A DNA stretch of 33,636 bases from Solirubrobacterales bacterium (GTDB lineage Bacteria > Actinomycetota > Thermoleophilia > Solirubrobacterales > Solirubrobacteraceae): contig JAOPZJ010000170.1 in the NCBI GenBank assembly GCA_025964155.1, positions 1-33,636 of the forward strand. The letters run 5' to 3'. The translations under genes were made by a program, and so were the position numbers. Numbering within the stretch: the stretch's first letter is position 1; each line of letters begins with the position of its first letter. This document shows positions 8,907-26,150 of this stretch, piece after piece. The notes under the pieces were generated by a model. That model was not told where the DNA came from and did not search any database. It saw only the letters and a list, made by a program, of their open reading frames with translations.

Positions 8907-13006
<4,100 letters not shown>

Positions 13007-13015
13007 AGGTGCGTT

Positions 13016-13043
13016 GCGGCAATGCCCCCAGGGCCGTTGCTGC
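13016..13043 (+). terminator. Hairpin after serA
   Basis: GCGGCAA pairs with TTGCTGC (one G-U), and inside it GCCC pairs with GGGC. The structure begins ten bases after the serA stop. No T-tract follows, so this is a probable intrinsic or Rho-assisted terminator. Confidence 0.45.
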
Positions 13044-13124
13044 GCTTGACCCGTGGCTGCCGCGAGCAGATTTGGCATGTGACACCGTGGACAACCATGC
13101 CCGTCAATGCGCGACAGCCTGTCG

Positions 13125-13153
13125 TTGCCCTCACCGCGGCCCCAACGTAAGGT
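13125..13153 (+). promoter_or_regulatory. Promoter of the permease-usp operon
   Basis: TTGCCC, a 17-bp spacer and TAAGGT form a recognisable promoter, with the start expected near 13160. Upstream lie two inverted repeats that could bind regulators: GGCATG...CATGCC (13074-13101) and CGACA-gcc-TGTCG next to the -35. Confidence 0.5.
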
Positions 13154-13171
13154 CGGCCGTCCAGTCCATTG

Positions 13172-14710
13172 ATGGGATGCGAGGCCAGCGTGGAAGTAAC
13201 GAGCGTGGAAGCACCAACCGGAAGCGGCCAGGGATCGGCGCCGGGGAACAAGGGCCTCAAGGGCGGGGCCATCAGCTTCCTCTCCGGGGTCGTCATCGCG
13301 GTCGCCTCGACCGCGCCCGGCTACAGCCTCGCCGCGACGCTCGGCTTCATCGTCGCCGTCGAGGGCATCGGGGTGCAGGCGCCGGCCGTCATCCTGCTCG
13401 CCTTCATTCCGATGGGATGCATCGCGGCGGCGTACAACTACCTCAACCGCGCGGACCCCGACTGCGGCACGACGTTCGCGTGGGTGTCGACGGCGATGGG
13501 TCCGCGGATCGGCTGGATGGGCGGCTGGGCCGTGCTCGTCGCGGATGTGCTCGTCATGCCGAGCCTCGCCGCGGTGGCGGCGATCTACTCGTGTCAGCTG
13601 TTCGGCGTGGACAGCCCGTCGACCGGCGTCGTGCTGGCCATCGGCGTGGGGTGGATCGTCGTGATGACGTGGATCTGCTACATCGGGATCGAGCTGTCGG
13701 CACGGACGCAGCGGTGGCTGCTGGGCATGGAGTTCATCACCCTGCTCATCTTCGCGGTCGTCGCGCTCATCAAGGTCTACACGGGTAACCCCAAGGGGTC
13801 GATCGACCCGAGCTGGTCGTGGTTCAACCCGCTGGACATCTCCTCGTCGACCGCCATGGCCAGCGGCGTCCTGCTGGCGATCTTCATCTACTGGGGGTGG
13901 GATTCGGCGGTCAGCGTCAACGAGGAGACCGAGAACGGTTCTGAGTCCTCCGGCAAGGCGGCGGTCATCTCGACGTTCATCCTGCTCGGCATCTACGTCG
14001 TGGTGGCGACGGCCGCCCAGGCGTTCGGCGGGACGCAGTCGCTGATCGACAACCAGAGCGACGTGTTCGCCCCGATCGCCAAGGACGTCCTGGGCTCGCC
14101 GCTGGACAAGCTGCTCATCATCGCGGTGCTCACGTCGGCCTCCGCCTCGACGCAGACAACGATCCTGCCCGCCACGCGGTCCGCGCTGTCGATGGCCAGG
14201 CGCAAGGCGCTGCCCGATGGCTTCGGCACGGTGCATCCGCGCCACATGACCCCGTCGACGGCCACGATCTGGATGGGCGCGGTGTCCGGAGCCGTCTTCG
14301 CCTTCTTGGAGCTCACGAGCCAGAACCTCATCGCGGACGCCTTCACGTCGCTGGCCATGACGATCGCCTTCTACTACGGTCTGACCGGCTTCGCGTGCAC
14401 GTGGTTCTACCGCCACCACCTGTTCAAGAGCGCGAGGAACTTCCTGTACCTCGCCGTCCTCCCGCTGACGGGCGCCGCGATCCTCGCCTACGTCTTCTAC
14501 AAGGCGGTCAAGGACTACTCGGTGTCCGACGGTGGCTACGCCAAACCGTTCCTCGGGGTCGGGTCGCCCGTCGTCATCACGGCGGTCATGATCATCACGG
14601 GTCTGGTGTTGATGGCGCTGCAGTGGCGCAACAACCCCGAGTTCTTCCGGGAGAAGCCCCGGCCGATCGACCCGGCGCTGGCCGCCCAGCTGACGAAGGG
14701 CACGGCCTGA
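13172..14710 (+). CDS. APC-superfamily amino acid permease
   Basis: This is a 512-residue polytopic membrane protein with about 12 hydrophobic segments. After a soluble Gly/Ser-rich N-terminus come GAISFLSGVVIAVASTAPGYSLAATLG (first helix with the unwound-substrate region), conserved charged loops, and ILPATRSALSMARRKALPDGFGTVHPRH, a loop typical of the APC family. Substrate cannot be told; amino acids or polyamines are likely. The ATG at 13172 is the first after the predicted transcript start. A GTG at 13190 has a GAGG ribosome site five bases ahead and is a serious alternative. Its stop overlaps the next gene's ATG (TGATG), and permease plus universal stress domain is a common pairing. Confidence 0.9.
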   Translation: MGCEASVEVTSVEAPTGSGQGSAPGNKGLKGGAISFLSGVVIAVASTAPGYSLAATLGFIVAVEGIGVQAPAVILLAFIPMGCIAAAYNYLNRADPDCGTTFAWVSTAMGPRIGWMGGWAVLVADVLVMPSLAAVAAIYSCQLFGVDSPSTGVVLAIGVGWIVVMTWICYIGIELSARTQRWLLGMEFITLLIFAVVALIKVYTGNPKGSIDPSWSWFNPLDISSSTAMASGVLLAIFIYWGWDSAVSVNEETENGSESSGKAAVISTFILLGIYVVVATAAQAFGGTQSLIDNQSDVFAPIAKDVLGSPLDKLLIIAVLTSASASTQTTILPATRSALSMARRKALPDGFGTVHPRHMTPSTATIWMGAVSGAVFAFLELTSQNLIADAFTSLAMTIAFYYGLTGFACTWFYRHHLFKSARNFLYLAVLPLTGAAILAYVFYKAVKDYSVSDGGYAKPFLGVGSPVVITAVMIITGLVLMALQWRNNPEFFREKPRPIDPALAAQLTKGTA

Positions 14711-15129
14711 TGGCCAACACGCTCGTGGTGGGCTACGACGGGACCGACGGCGCCCGCGCCGCGCTGGACGAGGCGCTACGCCTCGCCGCCGACCTGGATG
14801 CCGGCGTGCACCTCGTGTTCGCGTTCGAGGCGCCGCGCACGGGTGGGGAGTTGCACGACCTGGACGACGCGATCGCCCAGCGTGGGAAGACCATGCTGGA
14901 GCACGGCGTGCACCAGGCTGCGGCCGCGGGGGCAAAGGTGACGACGGCCTTGCTGAAGGCCGACCCCGCCGACGGCCTGATCGGGGCGGCAGGCGAGGTC
15001 GACGCCCGCTACATCGTCGTCGGTTCCTATGGCGAACGCCCGCTGAAGAGCGCACTGGTGGGTTCCACGCCCACGCGCCTGCTGCATCTGTCGGACCGCC
15101 CGGTCCTGGTCGTGCGCGCACCCGAGTAG
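14710..15129 (+). CDS. Universal stress protein (UspA family)
   Basis: This 139-residue single-domain USP starts MANTLVVGYDGTDGARAALDEAL, the usual first strand and helix, and ends with the ATP-binding pattern GSYGERPLKSALVGSTPTRLLHLSDRPVLVV, i.e. G-x2-G-x9-G-S. It therefore probably binds ATP. Its ATG overlaps the permease stop by one base, so the two are co-translated. USP domains are often fused to or encoded with transporters, where they are thought to adjust transport; that role is inferred here. The ORF track starts the frame at 14395 within the permease, which is a shadow. Confidence 0.92.
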   Translation: MANTLVVGYDGTDGARAALDEALRLAADLDAGVHLVFAFEAPRTGGELHDLDDAIAQRGKTMLEHGVHQAAAAGAKVTTALLKADPADGLIGAAGEVDARYIVVGSYGERPLKSALVGSTPTRLLHLSDRPVLVVRAPE

Positions 15130-15132
15130 GTT
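15127..15132 (+). promoter_or_regulatory. Leaderless-type -10 overlapping the usp stop codon
   Basis: TAGGTT includes the TAG stop of the stress protein gene and sits six bases before the next ATG at 15139. This suggests separate, leaderless expression of the dehydrogenase. Confidence 0.45.
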
Positions 15133-15138
15133 TGCGCC

Positions 15139-16140
15139 ATGCGCGTCGTCGTCATCACCACCCATGGCACCTACGACGTCCTGCAGGTGCAGGAACGTCC
15201 TGACCCGGTATGCGGGCCCGGTCAGGTGCGGATCGAGGTGAAGGCCGCGGGCGTGAACTTCGCGGACGTCATGGCGCGCATCGGGCTGTACCCCGACGCG
15301 CCGAAGCCACCGTGCGTCGTGGGCTACGAGGTCAGCGGCCTCGTCGCCGAGGTCGGCGACGGGGTGGACCGCTTCGCCGTCGGTGACCGCGTGATGGCGG
15401 GCACGCAGTTCGGCGGCTACGCCGAGCAGGTCGTCGTCCCCACCGGCGACGTCGTCCCGCTGCCGGACGCGCTGAGCTTCGAGCAGGGCGCCGCGATCCC
15501 GGTGAACTACGCGACGGCCTGGGCGGGCCTGGTCGGCTACGGCAGCCTGCGCGCGGGAGAGCGGGTGCTCCTGCACGCCGCGGCCGGTGGCGTCGGCATC
15601 GCCGCCACGCAGATCGCCCGACGGCACGGCGCGGAGGTGTGGGGGACCTCCTCACCGTCCAAGCACGAGGCGATCCGCGGCTTCGGCGTGCAGCACCCGC
15701 TGGACTACACCCGCAAGGGCTGGGAGCGAGGCCTGTCGTCCTTCGACCTCATCATGGACGCGATCGGCGGCGCGAGCCTGCGCCGCAGCTACAAGATGCT
15801 GCGGGCCGGGGGCCGGGTCGTGGCGTTCGGGGCCTCGTCGGTCGTCGCCGGGGAGAAGCGCTCGCTGCTGAAGGCAGCACCCCAGGCGCTGCAGATGGTC
15901 CGCGGCTTCAACCTCATGGACCAGATGGGCGAGTCCAAGACCGTGATCGGACTGAACATGCTCACGCTGTGGAAGGACCGGGGGACCCTCGAGCCGTGGG
16001 TGACCCCGCTGCTTGACCTCATGGCCGACGGCACGATCCAGCCCGTCGTCTCCGACGCCGTGCCGTTCGAGCGGGCCGGCGAGGCACACCGGATCCTCAC
16101 CGAGCGCCGCAACATCGGCAAGGTCGTGCTCGTTCCCTGA
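15139..16140 (+). CDS. NADPH:quinone reductase-like zinc-free MDR dehydrogenase
   Basis: The 333-residue protein belongs to the medium-chain dehydrogenase/reductase superfamily, nearest in feel to quinone reductases and VAT-1-like proteins. It has the substrate-domain segment KAAGVNFADVMARIGLYP, GYEVSGLVAEVGDGVDRFAVGDRV, and the nucleotide motif HAAAGGVGIAATQIA (AxxGxxG, NADPH type). The cysteine cluster for structural zinc is absent, as in quinone reductases. The C-terminal part retains the MDR ending FERAGEAHRILTERRNIGKVVLVP. The physiological substrate is unknown. It lies between the permease pair and the leuA leader, with no clear link to either. Confidence 0.88.
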   Translation: MRVVVITTHGTYDVLQVQERPDPVCGPGQVRIEVKAAGVNFADVMARIGLYPDAPKPPCVVGYEVSGLVAEVGDGVDRFAVGDRVMAGTQFGGYAEQVVVPTGDVVPLPDALSFEQGAAIPVNYATAWAGLVGYGSLRAGERVLLHAAAGGVGIAATQIARRHGAEVWGTSSPSKHEAIRGFGVQHPLDYTRKGWERGLSSFDLIMDAIGGASLRRSYKMLRAGGRVVAFGASSVVAGEKRSLLKAAPQALQMVRGFNLMDQMGESKTVIGLNMLTLWKDRGTLEPWVTPLLDLMADGTIQPVVSDAVPFERAGEAHRILTERRNIGKVVLVP

Positions 16141-16159
16141 AAGGCTGTGAGGGATGCGC

Positions 16160-16165
16160 TACATT
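16160..16165 (+). promoter_or_regulatory. Candidate -10 of the leuA transcript
   Basis: TACATT lies nine bases before the leader-peptide ATG at 16175, so the leader peptide would sit at the very 5' end of the mRNA. An in-frame ATG at 16154 lies before this hexamer and would not be transcribed. Confidence 0.5.
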
Positions 16166-16174
16166 GAGCCACGC

Positions 16175-16222
16175 ATGTCGCCTCGGTCGTCTCTTCGCCT
16201 GCTTCTCCTCCTTCCCCGCTAG
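16175..16222 (+). CDS. leuL: Leucine-rich leader peptide of leuA
   Basis: A 15-codon ORF reads MSPRSSLRLLLLLPR and stops at TAG. Six of 15 residues are leucine, five in a row, encoded by CTT, CTG, CTT, CTC, CTC, CTT. CTT is expected to be rare in a genome this GC-rich, so its use here suggests a sensor for charged tRNA-Leu. The ORF is too short for the track. It lies 89 bp before leuA, right after a promoter-like hexamer. This is the layout of an attenuation leader; leucine leaders before leuA are established in actinobacteria. The peptide itself probably has no other function. Confidence 0.85.
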   Translation: MSPRSSLRLLLLLPR

Positions 16223-16274
16223 GGGAATGCATCAGCGCGTGGCGGCCGCCTGAAGCCGCGAACCATTGGAGAAG
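16202..16274 (+). promoter_or_regulatory. Attenuator-like leader structures before leuA
   Basis: The leucine codons CTTCTCC (16202-16208) are the perfect complement of GGAGAAG (16268-16274). Within the loop lie a perfect hairpin TTCCCC-gcta-GGGGAA (16212-16227), spanning the leader stop codon, and GCGGC...GCCGC (16242-16259). A ribosome paused on the leucine codons would block the long-range pairing, so leader translation and mRNA folding are linked. No T-tract is seen, so the outcome could be Rho-dependent termination or control of leuA translation. The detailed mechanism is inferred. Confidence 0.65.
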
Positions 16275-16310
16275 ACCGAAGGACAAGCCCCAGAAAGGCA
16301 CCGATACGAC

Positions 16311-17942
<1,632 letters not shown>

Positions 17943-17944
17943 AA

Positions 17945-18036
17945 GCGAAAAGCCGCGCCCGGGAGGCGTGCTTCCCGGGCGCGAACTCGCCGACGGAAAA
18001 CGAGCCCCCTGGGGCGAGGCTTTTCGCGGGCTCGTT
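17945..18036 (+). terminator. Complex inverted-repeat region after leuA
   Basis: Three perfect pairings occur in 92 bp. CGCGCCCGGGA/TCCCGGGCGCG (17954-17983, 11 bp) lies inside GCGAAAAGCC/GGCTTTTCGC (17945-17954 with 18018-18027, 10 bp), and AACGAGCCC/GGGCTCGTT (17999-18007 with 18028-18036, 9 bp) crosses the second. The first hairpin starts 12 bp after the leuA stop and looks like a terminator. The crossing pairs must be alternatives or a pseudoknot. The last arm ends 19 bp before the next start. Confidence 0.6.
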
Positions 18037-18054
18037 CGCGCGCATTGGGAGACC

Positions 18055-19302
18055 ATGAAGGCCGTGGACGAGGTCGAGGCCGCCCTCGCCGCTCTGAACG
18101 ACGCCGCGCTCATCGCTGACCTGCGGGCGCTCGTGGCGACCGCGAGCGTCACCGGTGACGAGCGTGAGGTGATGCAGCTGGCGGCCGCGCAGGCCCGGCG
18201 GGCCGGGCTCCACGGGGTGCAGGTCGTCGCCTATGACCTGGACGCGGTCCGCGCGGATGCCGATCACCCGGGCGAGGAGGCGGACCGGACCGAGCTCGTG
18301 AACGTGCGAGCCCGCCTGGAGGGCGCCACCGCCGGCGCGCCGCTCCTCGCCCTCTGCGCGCACCTGGACGTGGTGGGCCCCGGCACGACGCCATGGGCGC
18401 ACGGGTCCCCGTGGTCGGCGGTCGTGGAGGACGGCCGGCTCTACGGGCGCGGCAGCGCCGACATGAAGGCAGGCTTCGCGGCGGCCCTGCACGCGCTGCG
18501 CGCGGTCAGCGCGGCCGGTGTCGTCCCGCGCTGCGCGGTGGAGCTCCTGGGGGTCTCCTCGGAGGAGGACGGCGGCCTCGGGGCGTTCGCGGCCCTGCGC
18601 GAGGATCCCGGTTACGCCGCGTGCGTCGTCCCCGAGCCCACGGGCTTCGACGTCGTCTGCGCCCAGGCGGGCGCGATCACCTTCACCGGCGTCGTGCACG
18701 GCGTGGCCGCCCACGCCGCGCATCGCCTGAAAGGCGCCAGCGCCATCGACCGCTACCTGCCCGTCCACGCGGCGCTGCACGCGCTGGAGGCAGAGCTCAA
18801 CACGAGCGTGGACCACGCGCTGATGGCGGCGCTCGAGCTGCCCTACCCCGTGCTCGTGGGCCGGGTCGCCGCCGGCGACTGGTCCTCCTCGGTCCCCGAC
18901 CGCCTGGAGTTCGAAGGCCGGGCGCCGGTGCGGGTCGGGGAGACGCTGGAGCAGGCACGCCGCGCCGTCGAGGCGGCGATCATCGGGGCCGGCGACGGTC
19001 ACGTGGGGCTGCGCTGGTCCGGCGGGCAGTTCGCGTCCGCCGCGACGGCGGTCGACCATCCGCTCACGCAGCTCGTGCAGCGCGCCGCGAGCACCGTGAC
19101 CGGCGCGACCAGCAGGGTCACGGGCGTGCCGTGGGGCGCCGACATGCGGCTGTTCGCGGAGCGCGGGATCCCGACGGTCATGTGCGGCACGAGCGGGATC
19201 GAGCGCGCACACGCCGTCGACGAGTACGTCGCGACCGACGAAGTGCTCGCGCTCGCCCGGACGCTCGTCCGCGTCATCTGTGGTTTCGAAACCGCCGCCT
19301 GA
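18055..19302 (+). CDS. M20 family metallopeptidase/deacylase (ArgE/DapE-like)
   Basis: This zinc hydrolase family cleaves N-acyl amino acids or dipeptides; examples are acetylornithine deacetylase and succinyl-diaminopimelate desuccinylase. The 415-residue protein keeps all expected residues: His103 and Asp105 in CAHLDVV, Asp136 in GSADMKAG, Glu170 and Glu171 in SSEEDGG, Glu194 in VPEPTG, and His386 in ERAHAVDEY. An inserted dimerisation domain lies near 200-300. The exact substrate cannot be read. I used ATG 18055 because the track's start at 17968 lies inside the inverted-repeat region; a GGGAG stretch is four bases ahead. It sits between leuA and the regulator gene. Confidence 0.9.
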   Translation: MKAVDEVEAALAALNDAALIADLRALVATASVTGDEREVMQLAAAQARRAGLHGVQVVAYDLDAVRADADHPGEEADRTELVNVRARLEGATAGAPLLALCAHLDVVGPGTTPWAHGSPWSAVVEDGRLYGRGSADMKAGFAAALHALRAVSAAGVVPRCAVELLGVSSEEDGGLGAFAALREDPGYAACVVPEPTGFDVVCAQAGAITFTGVVHGVAAHAAHRLKGASAIDRYLPVHAALHALEAELNTSVDHALMAALELPYPVLVGRVAAGDWSSSVPDRLEFEGRAPVRVGETLEQARRAVEAAIIGAGDGHVGLRWSGGQFASAATAVDHPLTQLVQRAASTVTGATSRVTGVPWGADMRLFAERGIPTVMCGTSGIERAHAVDEYVATDEVLALARTLVRVICGFETAA

Positions 19303-19319
19303 GCACCGCGCAATACAGA

Positions 19320-19337
19320 TGTACGTGATAACGTACA
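19320..19337. promoter_or_regulatory. Perfect inverted-repeat operator at the regulator promoter
   Basis: TGTACGT-gata-ACGTACA is a perfect 7+7 inverted repeat. It overlaps the likely -10 hexamer TAACGT (19329-19334), ten bases before the regulator ATG at 19345. Position and symmetry fit autorepression by the dimeric XRE-cupin protein, or by another dimeric repressor. Confidence 0.7.
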
Positions 19338-19344
19338 GACGGCC

Positions 19345-19932
19345 ATGGCGACCATCGACGACTTCGAGGCGGCGATCCACATCGGGCCGCGCGTGCGCGC
19401 CCTGCGCGAGGCGATGGACCTGAGCCTGCGGGACCTCGCCGAGCGCTCCGGCGTGAGCGCCCCGATGCTCAGCCAGGTCGAGCGCGCGGAGACGAGCCCG
19501 ACGCTCGCCGTCGCCGGGCGCATCGCGCACGGGCTGGAGCTCAAGCTCAGCCAGTTGCTGCGCCTCGACGAGTCCGAGACCGTCTCGATCGTCCGGGCAG
19601 GGGAGCGCCGACGCGGCGGGGCGGGCAAGCACACGTTCGAGATCCTCACCGCCCCGCTACCCGGCCAGCGGGCTGAGCTCAGCCGTCACCTGCTGGCGCC
19701 CGGCGCCCAGACCGGCGGCCCCGGCGACCCGCCGATGCACGAGGCCGGCAGCCGCGAGATCACGGTCGTCGAGCGCGGCGAGGCCGTCCTCGTCATCGAC
19801 GCAAGCCGACACCACCTCCACACCGGCGACTGCGTCACCTTCGACGCCGATCTGCCCCACCACTTCGAGAACCCGACCCAAGAGGAGACTGCCCTGCTGA
19901 ACGTCGTGTCAGCCGGGCTGCGCCGCTCATGA
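19345..19932 (+). CDS. XRE-family HTH regulator with C-terminal cupin sensor
   Basis: The 195-residue protein has an N-terminal helix-turn-helix ([38 protein letters not shown] in pieces, residues about 15-50) and a cupin-type ligand-binding barrel ([40 protein letters not shown], residues about 120-185). This architecture is common among regulators of amino-acid, polyamine or sulfur metabolism. It is probably autoregulated through the inverted repeat at its own promoter. It follows the M20 gene by 42 bp and precedes leuC by 52 bp on the same strand, so control of either neighbour is plausible but unproven. The ligand is unknown. Confidence 0.92.
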
Positions 19933-19984
19933 GCACACCCAAGAAGCAATCTCAAGTCCCCGCGCGACACGTTCGGGTCCTGAG

Positions 19985-21334
19985 ATGAGTTCCAAGACGT
20001 TGTTCGACAAGATCTGGGACGCCCACGAGGTGGTTTCCGGCCTCATCTACATCGACCTGCACCTCGTGCACGAGGTCACGTCGCCACAGGCGTTCGACGG
20101 CCTGCGCCTCGCCGGGCGCGGCGTCCGCCGGCCCGACCGCACGCTCGCCACCGCGGATCACAACACGCCGACCGACGGCACGCCGACGGCCAAGCTCATC
20201 AAGGACCAACTGAGCCGCAAGCAGGTGGAGACCCTCGAGGAGAACTGCGCGGAGTTCGGCGTGCCGATCTACTCGCTGGGCTCCGACAAGCAGGGCATCG
20301 TCCACGTCATCGGCCCGGAGCTCGGGGTGACCCAGCCGGGCATGACGATCGTCTGCGGCGACTCGCACACCGCCACGCACGGCGCGTTCGGCGCGCTGGC
20401 CTTCGGCATCGGCACCTCCGAGGTCGAGCACGTGCTGGCGACGCAGACGCTGGGTCAGGTCAAGCCCAGGTCGATGCGCATCTCCTACGAGGGTCAGCTC
20501 GGTCCCGGCGTCACGGCCAAGGACCTCATCCTCGGCACGATCGGCCAGATGGGCGTCGACGGCGCCGGCGGCCACGTCGTGGAGTTCGCGGGCCCCGCGA
20601 TCGAGGCACTCTCGATGGAGGGCCGCATGACCGTCTGCAACATGACGATCGAAGGGGGCGGCCGCGCGGGCATGATCGCCCCGGACGAGAAGACCTACCA
20701 GTGGCTGCGCGATCGCGGGGTGCAGGTGGACGACGCGTGGGCCGACCTCAAGACGGACGAGGGCGCGACCTTCGACCGTGAGATCGTCGTCGACGCGTCC
20801 GCGCTGAGCCCGCAGGTCACGTGGGGCACGACCCCCGAGATGGTCGTCGCCGTCAGCGAGGCGGTCCCCGCGCCGCAGGACGCGGGCGACCAGCGCGCTC
20901 TGGAGTACATGGCGCTGGAGGCGGGCACGCCGATGACGCAGATCAAGCTCGATCGCGTCTTCATCGGCTCGTGCACGAACTCCCGCATCGGGGACCTGCG
21001 CGCCGCGGCGTCGATGATCGGGGGCAAGAAGGTCGCCGACGGCGTCATCGCGATGGTCGTCCCGGGCTCACAGCAGATCAAGGCCCAGGCCGAGGCCGAG
21101 GGTTTGGACGAGGTCTTCAAGGCGGCCGGCTTCGACTGGCGCGTGGCGGGGTGCTCGATGTGCCTCGGGATGAACCCGGACGTCGCGGCGCCGGGCGAGC
21201 GCGTGGCCTCGACCTCCAACCGCAACTTCGAGGGACGTCAGGGCCGCGGCGCCCGCAGTCACCTCGTCTCCCCGCAGATGGCCGCCGCGGCCGCCATCGA
21301 GGGCCACTTCGTCGACATCCGGAACTGGAGCTAG
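19985..21334 (+). CDS. leuC: 3-isopropylmalate dehydratase large subunit
   Basis: LeuC with LeuD isomerises 2-isopropylmalate; the same complex acts on citramalate. The 449-residue product has the three 4Fe-4S cysteines Cys330 (IGSCTNSR), Cys390 and Cys393 (GCSMCLGMN), plus [22 protein letters not shown] and the ending [22 protein letters not shown]. The ATG at 19985 has no good Shine-Dalgarno sequence and no clear -10 in the 52-bp gap after the regulator; an imperfect hairpin (about 19952-19984) lies right before the start. It may be co-transcribed with the regulator. leuD starts four bases after its stop. Confidence 0.97.
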
Positions 21335-21338
21335 AGCC

Positions 21339-21899
21339 ATGGATCCCGTCAGCACCATCGAGGGCGCCATCACGTTCGTCGACCAGGAGGACGTCGACAC
21401 CGACCAGATCATCCCGGCGCGCTACATGAAGCGCGTCGAGCGGACCGGTTTCGGCGAGTACCTCTTCCACGAGTGGCGCGCCAACGGCTATGACCTGCCC
21501 GCCAACCCGATCCTTGTCGCCGGGGAGAACTTCGGCTGCGGATCCAGCCGCGAGCACGCTCCGTGGGCGCTCCTGGACTACGGGTTCGTCGCGCTCATCT
21601 CGCCGCGCTTCGCCGACATCTTCCGCAACAACTGCACGAAGAACGGCATGCTGCCGATCGAGCTGCCCAAGGAGCAGTGCGACGAGATCGTCCGGCGCGG
21701 CAAGGCGAAGATCGACCTCGAGGCGCAGACCGTCGACGAGTTCTCCTTCGCCATCGATCCGCAGATCAAGCATCGCCTGCTCAACGGCCTGGACGACATC
21801 TCGCTGACGCTGGCCCAAGTCGACGCGATCGAGGCCTACGAGTCTGGCCGCGAACGCAGCGGTCCTGACACGACCGCGCTGACCGGGGCCGGCGTATGA
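21339..21899 (+). CDS. leuD: 3-isopropylmalate dehydratase small subunit
   Basis: LeuD is the swivelling small subunit that completes the LeuC active site. The 186-residue protein has the family landmarks DVDTDQIIPARYMKRVERTGFGEYLF, ENFGCGSSREHAPWALLDYGF, and FADIFRNNCTKNGMLPIEL. A GGAG ribosome site lies eight bases before the ATG and overlaps the end of leuC. Its stop overlaps the leuB start by four bases (ATGA). Length is normal and nothing is missing. Confidence 0.97.
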   Translation: MDPVSTIEGAITFVDQEDVDTDQIIPARYMKRVERTGFGEYLFHEWRANGYDLPANPILVAGENFGCGSSREHAPWALLDYGFVALISPRFADIFRNNCTKNGMLPIELPKEQCDEIVRRGKAKIDLEAQTVDEFSFAIDPQIKHRLLNGLDDISLTLAQVDAIEAYESGRERSGPDTTALTGAGV

Positions 21900-22933
21900 C
21901 CCATGTCGTCACGCTGCCGGGCGACGGCATCGGGCCCGAGATCATGGTGCCGGCGGTGCAGCTGCTGCAGCACTTCGTCCCCGACGTCACCGTCGAGGAG
22001 CACGTCTTCGGCGGCGCGTCGATCGACGCGCACGGCACGGCGCTGACCGACGACACCCTCGCGGCCTGCCGGCAGGCCGACGCCGTCCTGCTGGCTGCTG
22101 TCGGCGGTCCCAAGTGGGACACGACGAACCCGGACGACCCACGTCCCGAGCAGGGCCTGCTCGGCCTGCGCAAGGCGCTCGGGCTCTTCGCCAACCTCCG
22201 TCCGGTGCGCCCGCTGCCGGCGCTCTATGACTCAAGCCCGCTCAAGCGCGAGCGGATCGAGGGCACCGACCTCCTCGTCGTGCGCGAGCTCACCGGCGGC
22301 ATCTACTTCGGCGACAAGACGCGCACGGACACCGACGCGTCGGACCTGTGCCACTACACGGTGGATGAGGTGGACCGCATCGCCCGCGTCGCGTTCGAGG
22401 CCGCCAGGCGGCGGCGAGGGAGCGTGGCATCGGTCGACAAGGCCAACGTCATGGAGACCTCGCGCCAGTGGCGCCAGGTCGTCCACGCGGTCCACGCCGC
22501 CGACTACGCCGACGTGCTGCTCACCGACGTACTCGTCGACAACGCCGCGATGCAGCTCGTCTCGCGCCCGGCGGACTTCGACGTGATCGTCACCGAGAAC
22601 CTCTTCGGCGACATCCTGAGCGACGAGGCCGCGATGATCACCGGGTCGATCGGGATGCTGCCGTCCGCGTCGCTGGGCAACGGCGCCGGCCCCGGGCTGT
22701 TCGAGCCCGTCCACGGATCGGCGCCGGACATCGCGGGCACCGGGGCCGCCAACCCCCTGGCCATGTTCCTGTCGCTCGCCATGCTGCTGCGGCACGGGCT
22801 GTCGCTCGACGCCGAGGCGCTCGCCCTGGAGGCGGCCGTCGACCGCGCGCTGGACGACGGGCTGCGCACCCGCGACCTCGGCGGGAACGCCGGTACGGAG
22901 GAGGCGACCGCTGCGGTGCTCGCCCACCTGTAG
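21896..22933 (+). CDS. leuB: 3-isopropylmalate dehydrogenase
   Basis: LeuB oxidatively decarboxylates 3-isopropylmalate, and 3-methylmalate in the citramalate route. The 345-residue protein begins THVVTLPGDGIGPEIMVPAV, has the substrate-arginine region (ELTGGIYFGDKTRTDTDASD), the SVDKANVMETSRQWR lysine segment, the metal-binding aspartates in LVDNAAMQLV and DILSDEAAMI, and the NAD-binding HGSAPDIAGTGAANPLA. Its ATG overlaps the leuD stop by four bases. It is the last gene of leuCDB; decayed DNA follows. Confidence 0.97.
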   Translation: MTHVVTLPGDGIGPEIMVPAVQLLQHFVPDVTVEEHVFGGASIDAHGTALTDDTLAACRQADAVLLAAVGGPKWDTTNPDDPRPEQGLLGLRKALGLFANLRPVRPLPALYDSSPLKRERIEGTDLLVVRELTGGIYFGDKTRTDTDASDLCHYTVDEVDRIARVAFEAARRRRGSVASVDKANVMETSRQWRQVVHAVHAADYADVLLTDVLVDNAAMQLVSRPADFDVIVTENLFGDILSDEAAMITGSIGMLPSASLGNGAGPGLFEPVHGSAPDIAGTGAANPLAMFLSLAMLLRHGLSLDAEALALEAAVDRALDDGLRTRDLGGNAGTEEATAAVLAHL

Positions 22934-22935
22934 CA

Positions 22936-23339
22936 CCGACGCGGGCCGTCCGTCCGTGTCGACGCGCTGCAGGTGGAGGACCTCGTGCACGGTGATCCCG
23001 TCGCGACTGTGGACGCGTCCCTTGGTCGACACGTGGACGTCCGCGCCGGCCTCCTCCTGGCGCATCCTGTGCACGCGGCCGCGGTCGTGTGCGAGAGCAC
23101 CGCCTCGGGCCCGGCCGCCCAGAGCGCGGCCAGCCAGCGCCCTCGTCGCGCAGCGCCGTGTGTCCGAAGGCGTAGACCCGTTCGTGTACCCGGGTGAGCC
23201 GGCGGCTGTCCACGCGGCGGCCGATGGCGCTGCGCGTGAGCCCCTCCCCGATGAAATCGGAGTGGCGCAGCACGCCGAACTGCTGATTCGCCCGCTCGAA
23301 CAGCCGCTGTTCCCAACCCGTCCGCTCTCGTGCTCGCAT
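22936..23339 (-). pseudogene. Decayed AbiEi-like (DUF559-type) regulator/antitoxin gene
   Basis: On the minus strand an ATG at 23339 begins WEQRLFERANQQFGVLRHSDF and GLTRSAIGRRVDSRRLTRVHERVYAFGH, the winged N-terminal domain of AbiEi/DUF559 proteins that are abundant in such actinobacteria. After RDEGAG the expected continuation LAALWAAGPEAVLSHTTAAA is in a second frame, and VHRMRQEEAGADVHVSTKGRVHSRDGITVHEV in a third. Two frameshifts are therefore needed, and the C-terminal nuclease-like half is absent before the leuB stop. It explains most of the 498-bp gap between leuB and ilvE. The frames were matched by eye, so the exact breakpoints (near 23140 and 23085) are approximate. Confidence 0.75.
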
Positions 23340-23382
23340 CGGGTACCAGGGCGGACAGACCCGGGACTCGCCCCCCTCGCGC

Positions 23383-23388
23383 TAAAGT
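23383..23388 (+). promoter_or_regulatory. Candidate -10 for ilvE
   Basis: TAAAGT would start transcription near 23395, leaving a leader of about 37 nt with a TAGGAG ribosome site nine bases before the ilvE GTG. This contrasts with the leaderless pattern at many neighbours. Confidence 0.45.
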
Positions 23389-23431
23389 TCGGGCCCGGCC
23401 TCGCCCTCACCCCCCTTAGGAGCCTCACGAC

Positions 23432-24403
23432 GTGGAACAAGCGGATCTCATCTGGCTGAACGGCGAGTTCGTCGCCTGGGAGGACGCCAAGATCCATGTC
23501 CTGACCCACGGGCTGCACTACGGCACCGGCGTCTTCGAAGGCATCCGCTGCTACGACACCGAGTCCCACGGCCCGGCGGTCTTCCGCCACCAGGATCACA
23601 TCGCGCGGTTGTTCAAGTCCGCGTCGCTGTACTACATGGATATCCCGTACCCGGCGCAGGAGCTGCGGCAGGCGACGCTCGAGCTTGTCGCCCGCAACGG
23701 CTTCAGGGATTGCTACGTCCGGCCGCTGGTCTACCGCGGCTACGGCACGATGGGCCTCGTCCCGCTGGACGCGCCCGTCGAGGTGACGCTTGCCTGCTGG
23801 AAGTGGGGGGCCTACCTCGGTGAGGAGGGCAAGCGCAACGGCGTGCGAGCGAAGGTCAGCTCGTGGCGGCGCATCAGCCCGGACTCGCTCATCCCGCAGG
23901 CCAAGGCGTCAGGGCAGTACCTCAACTCGATCCTCGCCAAGATCGAGACGCACAAGGCCGGCTACGAGGAGGCGATCGTCCTCGACGACAAGGGCCACGT
24001 CTGCGAGGGCTCCGGCGAGAACATCTTCGTCGTCAGCGAGGGCGTGATCCACACACCGCCGCCGACCGCCTCGATCCTGGACGGCATCAACCGCAAGTCG
24101 GCGATCCAGATCGCCCGTGACCTGGGGCTGACCGTCGTCGAGCGCGACATCGCACGCGCGGAGCTGTACCTCGCCGACGAGATCTACCTCACCGGCACCG
24201 CCGCCGAGCTCGTGCCCGTGCGCGAGGTCGACGATCACGCGGTGGGTACCGGCAAGCCCGGTGAGGTCACCATCGCGGTGCAGAAGGCGTTCGACGACGC
24301 CCTGCACGGGCGCTCCGCGCGCTACGCCGAATGGCTGGACCCGGTTCCGGCGCACCTGTACCCGTCCGCGACCGACGCCTCGGCCTCGAGCACGGTGGCC
24401 TGA
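23432..24403 (+). CDS. ilvE: Branched-chain amino acid aminotransferase
   Basis: This PLP fold-type IV enzyme performs the last step of leucine, isoleucine and valine synthesis. The 323-residue product has the family start IWLNGEFVAWEDAKIHVLTHGLHYGTGVFEGIRCY, the PLP lysine Lys158 in IPQAKASGQYLNS, EAIVLDDKGHVCEGSGENIF, and the ending IYLTGTAAELVPVREVD. The GTG start is supported by AGGAG upstream. It comes after the pseudogene and before cimA, so the branched-chain genes of the region converge on it. The last 20 residues are low complexity. Confidence 0.96.
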   Translation: MEQADLIWLNGEFVAWEDAKIHVLTHGLHYGTGVFEGIRCYDTESHGPAVFRHQDHIARLFKSASLYYMDIPYPAQELRQATLELVARNGFRDCYVRPLVYRGYGTMGLVPLDAPVEVTLACWKWGAYLGEEGKRNGVRAKVSSWRRISPDSLIPQAKASGQYLNSILAKIETHKAGYEEAIVLDDKGHVCEGSGENIFVVSEGVIHTPPPTASILDGINRKSAIQIARDLGLTVVERDIARAELYLADEIYLTGTAAELVPVREVDDHAVGTGKPGEVTIAVQKAFDDALHGRSARYAEWLDPVPAHLYPSATDASASSTVA

Positions 24404-24438
24404 AGGGCATCTGACGTGGTTCGGCAGCAGCGAATTCG

Positions 24439-24479
24439 GCGGCGGTGCACGACCTGACATCCGTCAGGCCGTTCGCCGC
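24439..24479 (+). repeat. Stem-loop in the cimA leader
   Basis: GCGGCG/CGCCGC (6 bp) encloses a perfect CCTGAC-atcc-GTCAGG hairpin (6 bp, 24453-24468). It lies in the 118-bp gap between ilvE and cimA and may be an ilvE terminator or a cimA leader element. No leader peptide rich in leucine or isoleucine was found here. Confidence 0.45.
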
Positions 24480-24521
24480 TGCACGCGCTGCCCGCCACCA
24501 CTTCGAGAGGACCCAAGCACC

Positions 24522-26150
24522 ATGACGCAGCCCACCATCCAGCTCTACGACGCCACCCTGCGCGACGGCATGCAGGGGGAGGGGATGTCGCTCACCGCCG
24601 AGGAGAAGGTCCGCGTCGCGCACGAGCTCGACGCCCTTGGCATCGACCTCATCGAGGCGGGCTTTCCGTCGTCGAACCCCAAGGAGCTCGAGCTCTTCGA
24701 CCGCCTCGCGCGCGAGCGCTTTTCGCACGCCCAGATCGTGGCCTTCGGCATGACGAGCCGCCGGGGCGTGCAGGCCGACCAGGATGAGGGCCTACGCACG
24801 CTCGCGGAGTGCTTCACGCCGCTGATCACGATCGTCGGCAAGACCTGGGACCTGCACCTGGAGAAGGTCGTGAAGGTGGATCGCGAGGAGAACCTCGTCA
24901 TGATCGCCCAGTCGATCGAGTTCCTGGTGCGCCAGGGCAAGCGGGTGATCTACGACGCCGAGCATTTCTTCGACGCCTACCGGTCGGACGCGTCCTACGC
25001 GATGCGCTGCCTGCGCGCCGCCGCGAGCGCCGGCGCCGAGCGGATCGTCCTGTGCGACACCAACGGCTCCTCGCTGCCGCACCAGGTCGGCTCCGCGACG
25101 GCGGAGGTCGTCGCCGGGCTCGGCGGTGCCGTCCCGGTCGGCATCCACTGTCACAACGACCTGGAGTGCGGTGTCGCGAACAGCCTCGCCGCGGTCCTCA
25201 ACGGCGCCACCCAGGTCCAGGGCACGATGAACGGGATCGGCGAACGGACCGGCAACGCCAACCTCGTCTCCGTGATCGGCAACCTGCAGACGAAGCTCGG
25301 CTACCCGGTCCTCACCGACGAGCAGCTCATGCGGCTCACGCCGACCGCGCACATCATCGACGAGCTGCTGAACGTCGCACCGGACCCCAATCAGCCGTTC
25401 GTCGGCCGCAACGCCTTCGCGCACAAGGGCGGGTTGCACGTCGCCGGGATCCGCGCGGACGCCACGACCTTCGAGCACATGGTCCCGGAGACCGTCGGCA
25501 ATGCGCGAGCGCTGCTGGTCTCTGAGCTCGCCGGCCGTCAGACGATTGTCGAGAAGGCCCAGGACGCCGGCCTCGACCTGGACGAGGACGCGTGCGCGCG
25601 GCTCATCGACCAGGTCAAGGCGCTCGAGCACCAGGGCTTTCAGTTCGAGGCCGCCGACGCGTCCCTGACGTTGTTGCTGCGCCGGGAGGCCGGGGAGTAC
25701 GAGCAGCTCTTCACGCTGGAGTCCTGGCGCACGATCGTCGAGCAGGACGCTAAGGGCCAGGTCTCCTGCGAGGCCACGATCAAGATCGACATCGACGGCG
25801 AGCGCTTCGTGCGCACCGCCGAAGGCAACGGCCCGGTGAACGCACTGGACGCCGCGCTGCGCGCGGCGATCGGCGAGGTCCATCCGCACCTGAACGAGGT
25901 CGAGCTCGTCAACTACAAGGTGCGGATCCTCGACGAGCACCACGGCACCACCGCGACCACGCGCGTCCTCATCGACTCGACCGACGGGCACCGCAGCTGG
26001 GGCACGATCGGCGTGGCGCCGAACGTCATCGCCGCGTCCTGGCAGGCGCTGGTGGACTCGCTGGAATACGCGGAGCAGGCGAAACCCTCACCCGGCGGCT
26101 CGGATTCGGTCCGGGAGCTCGCCCAAGTTCCCGCGCCGGGAACTCGATGA
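24522..26150 (+). CDS. cimA: Citramalate synthase
   Basis: CimA condenses acetyl-CoA and pyruvate to citramalate, a threonine-independent entry to isoleucine. The 542-residue product shows the CimA form of the DRE-TIM motif, LYDATLRDGMQGEGMSLTAEEK (Arg14, Asp15), YDAEHFFDAYRSD, IHCHNDLECGVANSLAAV, NGIGERTGNANL and FAHKGGLHVAGI, the CimA counterpart of the LeuA subdomain. The C-terminal domain is the allosteric one. The ATG at 24522 has GAGAGGA about ten bases upstream; the track's start at 24261 is a shadow inside ilvE. The ATG of the next gene overlaps its stop. Homocitrate or isopropylmalate synthase is less likely given EHFFD. Confidence 0.93.
   Translation: MTQPTIQLYDATLRDGMQGEGMSLTAEEKVRVAHELDALGIDLIEAGFPSSNPKELELFDRLARERFSHAQIVAFGMTSRRGVQADQDEGLRTLAECFTPLITIVGKTWDLHLEKVVKVDREENLVMIAQSIEFLVRQGKRVIYDAEHFFDAYRSDASYAMRCLRAAASAGAERIVLCDTNGSSLPHQVGSATAEVVAGLGGAVPVGIHCHNDLECGVANSLAAVLNGATQVQGTMNGIGERTGNANLVSVIGNLQTKLGYPVLTDEQLMRLTPTAHIIDELLNVAPDPNQPFVGRNAFAHKGGLHVAGIRADATTFEHMVPETVGNARALLVSELAGRQTIVEKAQDAGLDLDEDACARLIDQVKALEHQGFQFEAADASLTLLLRREAGEYEQLFTLESWRTIVEQDAKGQVSCEATIKIDIDGERFVRTAEGNGPVNALDAALRAAIGEVHPHLNEVELVNYKVRILDEHHGTTATTRVLIDSTDGHRSWGTIGVAPNVIAASWQALVDSLEYAEQAKPSPGGSDSVRELAQVPAPGTR

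What the first reader, a model, noticed from the sequence alone, without database searches (positions are those of the whole stretch)
16160..16310. Leucine-sensing leader peptide and attenuator before leuA
A 15-codon ORF has six leucines, five in a row, with CTT codons expected to be rare at this GC content. Its leucine codons are perfectly complementary to GGAGAAG downstream, and a hairpin spans its stop. The peptide is likely translated from a nearly leaderless 5' end. The missing T-tract hints at a non-classical output.
Basis: partly seen in the sequence, partly recalled or inferred. Interest (0 to 1): 0.8.

Follow-up and report, generated by a model that had tools for sequence, protein, structure and literature searches.

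The report
Leucine-sensing leader before a leucine gene
Just before the first leucine-biosynthesis gene, the mRNA encodes a tiny leucine-rich peptide inside a foldable leader, conserved across much of a class of soil bacteria, that most likely lets leucine shortage switch on translation of the enzyme; it is an apparently undescribed variant of a switch already known in Streptomyces and Mycobacterium.

Summary
ORF 16175-16222 (MSPRSSLRLLLLLPR, six Leu, five in a row) precedes leuA (ATG 16311). A -10-like TACATT lies 9 nt upstream of its start, so it is probably near-leaderless. Its Leu codons are complementary to GGAGAAG (16268-16274), and a hairpin spans its stop. No T-tract terminator follows.

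The same leader occurs at 58 of 60 Solirubrobacterales leuA loci and, with other hairpin sequences, in four further Thermoleophilia families. In one relative it heads a leuS-leuA operon. Its arms co-evolve. Each species' Leu run pairs best with its own downstream tract, and the leader start region pairs best with its own leuA start region (0 of 2000 permutations; off-register controls null). In several families the Leu codons pair with the leuA Shine-Dalgarno itself.

Best reading: a leaderless, leucine-responsive attenuator acting on leuA translation. It resembles the published actinobacterial LEU element. It differs by two tandem hairpins instead of the pseudoknot and, in this family, by start-to-start pairing. 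Leucine sensing is well supported; the translational output and switching step are inferred, and folding models support them only partly.

The parts
16160..16165 (+). -10-like hexamer TACATT, 9 nt before the leader start codon
   Evidence: Sequence; TAnnnT at 8-13 nt in about 50 of 54 homologues, chance 6/272
16175..16222 (+). Leader peptide ORF MSPRSSLRLLLLLPR*
   Evidence: conserved leader at 58 of 60 Solirubrobacterales leuA loci
16174..16180 (+). CAUGUCG at the leader start, partner of the leuA start region
   Evidence: MFE fold; own-versus-swapped test z -5.9, p 0.003 to 1e-4 against nearest relatives
16200..16213 (+). Leu codon run; CUUCUCC 16202-16208 is the partner of GGAGAAG
   Evidence: own-versus-swapped z -4.5
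16212..16227 (+). Hairpin P1 UUCCCC-GCUA-GGGGAA; the leader stop codon lies in its loop and 3' arm
   Evidence: RNAalifold; 98.6% of P1+P2 cells paired, U-A/C-G swap in 6 sequences
16242..16259 (+). Hairpin P2 GCGGC ... GCCGC
   Evidence: other families keep a hairpin here with different sequence
16268..16274 (+). GGAGAAG, anti-Leu-codon tract
   Evidence: the equivalent tract is the leuA SD in families f3 and f6
16292..16298 (+). Probable leuA Shine-Dalgarno AGAAAGG
   Evidence: Sequence, 12 nt before the ATG
16307..16313 (+). CGACAUG at the leuA start, partner of CAUGUCG
16311..17942 (+). leuA, 2-isopropylmalate synthase, the controlled gene
   Evidence: NCBIfam NF002086 713.5 bits and TIGR00973 654 bits, both above cut-off

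Best explanation
The stretch 16160-16313 is a leucine-responsive attenuator that most likely acts on translation of leuA. Transcription starts a few nucleotides before the leader AUG and a ribosome loads on the near-leaderless 5' end (inferred from -10 spacing). With leucyl-tRNA plentiful the ribosome runs through the Leu codons, terminates on hairpin P1 and leaves. The leader then folds back on itself: the leader start pairs with the leuA start, the Leu codons pair with GGAGAAG, P1 and P2 sit inside, and leuA initiation is hindered. Shown: these pairings are possible and co-evolve. Inferred: that they repress. When leucyl-tRNA is short, ribosomes stall on the Leu codons, with a further ribosome queued at the 5' end, hold the 5' arm, and leave the leuA start free (inferred). 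The pyrimidine-rich CUU/CUC codons serve both as the sensor and as one strand of the switch.
For: Leader at 58 of 60 distinct Solirubrobacterales leuA loci, and in families f5, f6, f7 and f35 of Thermoleophilia. Co-evolution of arms in 36 leaders of the window's family: start x start z -5.9, Leu run x tract z -4.5, whole arms z -9.7, none of 2000 permutations; off-register controls z -0.6 and 0.0. Whole arms and start x start also hold against nearest relatives (p 7e-4 to 3e-6 and 0.003 to 1e-4). In f3+f5+f6+f7 the Leu run pairs with the leuA ribosome-binding region, z -5.5, control -0.3; in f6 GCUUCUCCU pairs with the SD AGGAGAAGC. Natural variant L113 has AUU CUG AUC CUU and its tract has become GGGAUCAGA, keeping the helix. 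The element heads a leuS-leuA operon in G024. No terminator. The own genome has one copy (E 1.8e-14; next 0.37).
Against: No expression, ribosome or leucine data. In folding models one ribosome stalled on the Leu codons does not free the window's leuA AUG (0.01 unpaired with or without); average opening is small (AUG 0.24 to 0.28), and the whole site rises from 0.41 to 0.58 only if a queued ribosome also holds the 5' end. The free leader's leuA site is hardly more closed than in swapped chimaeras (0.41 versus 0.44). Leu run x tract is weak against the single nearest relative (p 0.19). GGAGAAG is not the SD in this family. For S. coelicolor leuA, PMC1262725 reports that leader mutations did not behave as classical attenuation predicts.
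Confidence: 0.62

Rival explanations
1. Transcription attenuation without an intrinsic terminator: stalling or release on the leader decides whether Rho or a pause stops RNA polymerase before leuA.
For: Leader peptide with a stop inside a hairpin and no U-tract. PMC1262725 suggests Rho for similar actinobacterial leaders; locus L136 in the same phylum has what reads as an intrinsic terminator.
Against: The 3' arm whose pairing co-evolves is the leuA start or SD, which a purely transcriptional switch would not need.
Confidence: 0.2
2. The folded leader is mainly the binding site of a regulatory protein, as PMC1262725 proposed for the LEU element (ML1624-type helicase); the peptide is incidental.
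For: P1 and P2 are nearly invariant in Solirubrobacterales.
Against: The Leu run itself is conserved and placed 8-9 codons after the start in 46 of 54 leaders; P2 sequence differs between families; leaderless-type promoters are kept.
Confidence: 0.08
3. A specific nascent peptide (LLLLLPPRGE type) arrests the ribosome, rather than codon-level shortage of leucyl-tRNA.
For: The end of the peptide is conserved in many relatives.
Against: The tail changes (LPR, LPPRGE, LPSGS, LPGRGV) while hairpin P1 persists, so RNA rather than peptide is conserved; L113 replaces part of the Leu run with Ile codons.
Confidence: 0.05
4. Complementarity and leucine run are chance products of a pyrimidine-rich stretch.
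For: CU-rich and GA-rich tracts pair easily; the Leu run x tract signal is weak against the single nearest relative.
Against: Conservation across a class, 0 of 2000 shuffles, own-versus-swapped tests with null off-register controls.
Confidence: 0.02

Closest known systems
LEU element of Actinobacteria (Seliverstov et al. 2005, PMC1262725), e.g. Streptomyces leuL1 MRFGLLLLSCRGEGL (PMC8079986)
   Same: Upstream of leuA; leaderless short ORF with a leucine run; structured RNA beginning right after the run; no typical terminator; Leu run can pair with the leuA SD (here seen in families f3 and f6).
   Different: Thermoleophilia have two tandem hairpins (P1 with a 4-nt loop over the stop, then P2) and not the pseudoknot readable in Streptomyces- and Mycobacterium-type loci; in the window's family the leader start pairs with the leuA start and the anti-Leu tract lies upstream of the SD.
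Polycysteine leaderless uORF attenuators of mycobacteria (Canestrari et al. 2020; seen only as cited in PMC9031893 and PMC13236596)
   Same: Leaderless short ORF with a run of one amino acid's codons controlling the next genes.
   Different: Cysteine rather than leucine; the original paper was not available, so structures could not be compared.
Proteobacterial leu operon leader (Rfam Leu leader, from own knowledge)
   Same: Leucine-rich leader peptide before leu genes.
   Different: That is classical transcription attenuation with an intrinsic terminator; here there is no terminator and no Rfam match.

Membership tests
[quoted passage not shown]
LEU element (PMC1262725) | Base stem formed by the Leu codon run and the leuA Shine-Dalgarno | tested here: not met
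   In the window the partner GGAGAAG is 36 nt before the ATG and not the SD; the feature is met in relatives of families f3 and f6
LEU element (PMC1262725) | Conserved pseudoknot after the Leu run | tested here: not met
   P1 has a 4-nt loop and P2 is a separate hairpin; pseudoknot-type stems are readable by eye in Streptomyces/Mycobacterium-type loci
LEU element (PMC1262725) | Co-occurrence with ML1624-type helicase | not tested
   Not searched
Leaderless amino-acid leader-peptide attenuators | Promoter placed so that the transcript begins at or a few nt before the leader start codon | tested here: met
   -10-like site at 8-13 nt in about 50 of 54, chance 6/272; no transcription start mapped
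Leaderless amino-acid leader-peptide attenuators | Expression of the next gene responds to the amino acid through leader translation | not testable with these tools
   Needs reporter or ribosome profiling
Classical transcription attenuator (trp/leu type) | Terminator hairpin with U-tract alternative to an antiterminator | tested here: not met
   No sense-strand terminator-like site in 15900-16500
Any of 4227 Rfam 15 families | Match to a curated covariance model | tested here: not met
   No meaningful match at the leader

The most novel reading that the evidence does not exclude
In Solirubrobacteraceae the start codon of a leaderless sensor ORF is base-paired with the start codon of the enzyme gene, so that loading and queueing of ribosomes at the mRNA 5' end, not just one stalled ribosome, sets leuA translation. 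This would be a translational attenuator read by ribosome occupancy of the leaderless start.
Probability: 0.3. Interest if true: 0.65.

Novelty: new variant of a known kind. Interest (0 to 1): 0.52.

Why it matters
How the actinobacterial leuA leader works was left open in 2005: a leucine leader peptide without a terminator and without a settled mechanism. Thermoleophilia, with diverged leaders, give the comparative signal. The conserved partner of the leader ORF is the leuA ribosome-binding region, which points to control of translation. The pseudoknot is replaceable by two simple hairpins and is therefore probably not the core of the device. The element also follows leucine function, appearing before leuS in one genome and before a different leuA subtype in others. 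Together these give specific helices to mutate.

Tried and rejected
Rfam search for a known family: none. Intrinsic terminator: none on the sense strand. P1/P2 covariance model in the phylum: strong only in Solirubrobacterales, weak at other Thermoleophilia loci; the three weak hits outside the class that I read (L243, L246, L247) showed no leader. Own-versus-swapped tests in Streptomyces- and Mycobacterium-type loci gave no signal; those leaders are very similar and several leuA starts were mis-assigned, so this says little. Single-ribosome folding model as proof of switching: not convincing. Suspected T-box in Rubrobacter leuA leaders: no Rfam match. Upstream in-frame ATG 16154 as leader start: rejected because it precedes the -10-like site. 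TTG 16266 as leuA start: rejected because relatives start at the ATG equivalent to 16311. No paper in the open library mentions Thermoleophilia together with leader peptides.

Full report
What was checked. The ORF, its coordinates, the six leucines, the complementarity and the hairpin over the stop are all in the sequence. Short ORFs with five consecutive leucines are absent from 2000 shuffles of the region and occur nowhere else in the window. The gene that follows is leuA, and the window lies in a Solirubrobacterales genome (named relatives, for example Conexibacter arvalis and Solirubrobacter).

Conservation. I compared the leaders of leuA genes of relatives. Of 60 distinct Solirubrobacterales loci, 58 carry the same layout: a TAnnnT box 8-13 nt before the leader start, a short ORF whose leucine run begins after 8 or 9 codons (46 of 54), a C-rich/G-rich hairpin placed over or just before the stop, a second hairpin, a purine tract, and leuA 67-145 nt beyond the first hairpin. 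L069 lacks it and L114 is degenerate. Outside the order, families f5, f6 and f7 (21 loci) have the leader with other P2 sequences, for example GUUUGCC/GGCAAAC in f6. Family f35 has it before the other (yeast-type) leuA subtype.

RNA rather than peptide. The peptide tail changes (LPR, LPPRGE, LPSGS, LPGRGV) while P1 persists. P1 and P2 form in 98.6% of cells, with a few double changes. P1/P2 covariation within the order is limited because they hardly vary; the cross-family changes in P2 are the better evidence.

Long-range helices. The question was whether each leader's arms fit each other better than they fit those of relatives. In 36 leaders of the window's family they do, for leader start x leuA start (z -5.9), Leu run x tract (z -4.5) and whole arms (z -9.7), with 0 of 2000 permutations as good and null off-register controls. 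Against nearest relatives, whole arms and start x start remain significant; Leu run x tract becomes marginal. In f3+f5+f6+f7 the Leu run fits the own leuA ribosome-binding region (z -5.5; control -0.3), though family structure contributes there, and within f3 or f5 alone there is no signal. Locus L113 is a natural double variant: its run reads AUU CUG AUC CUU and its tract GGGAUCAGA.

Leucine link. In G024 the element stands before leucyl-tRNA synthetase, followed 76 nt later by a leuA gene. Together with the leucine run this makes leucine sensing very likely.

Output. There is no sense-strand terminator, and the co-evolving 3' arm is the leuA start or SD, so control of translation initiation is the most economical output. 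Folding models give only partial support: the window's leuA AUG is paired in the free leader (unpaired 0.01), but one ribosome on the Leu codons does not release it; adding a queued ribosome at the 5' end raises mean accessibility of the whole site from 0.41 to 0.58, in 39 of 44 leaders, and swapped chimaeras are nearly as closed (0.44). The switching step therefore stays an inference.

Comparison. PMC1262725 described a LEU element before leuA in most Actinobacteria then studied: a leucine-run ORF, a base stem between the run and the leuA SD, and a pseudoknot. PMC8079986 reports the Streptomyces lividans leader as leaderless and without a typical terminator. The same peptide appears in L135, whose pseudoknot-type stems can be read by eye, as in L132. 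The window's element shares the first feature, lacks the pseudoknot, and does not pair its run with the SD, so it works like a LEU element but is not filed as a member. Common descent is plausible and unproven. I found no published description for this class, within an open-access library only.

Noticed in passing
window 10124-10213 (+): ZMP/ZTP riboswitch (Rfam RF01750, 55.9 bits) just upstream of serC, followed by serA.
   Followed up: partly
L260 (G024:C85), L231: The same leader element stands before leuS and a yeast-type leuA. Its fold-back partner is an ATG of a 15-codon ORF that overlaps the leuS start (ATGA), perhaps a remnant and translationally coupled.
   Followed up: partly
L136 (G091): A leuA leader with a leucine run followed by what reads as a classical intrinsic terminator (GC-rich stem, then CUUCUUCAUUUUU), in a group outside Thermoleophilia.
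   Followed up: no
L045, L046 upstream of leuA: Rubrobacter leuA has no leucine leader but a different, partly conserved-looking structured leader (CAUCCUACGACUAGC...GGUGGCC); no Rfam match.
   Followed up: partly
L113 (G030), leader and tract: Leader with mixed Ile/Leu codons and a compensating tract; may sense isoleucine as well.
   Followed up: partly
window 8907-26147: Branched-chain and serine genes cluster: ilvC, serC, serA, leuA, leuC, leuD, leuB and citramalate synthase.
   Followed up: no
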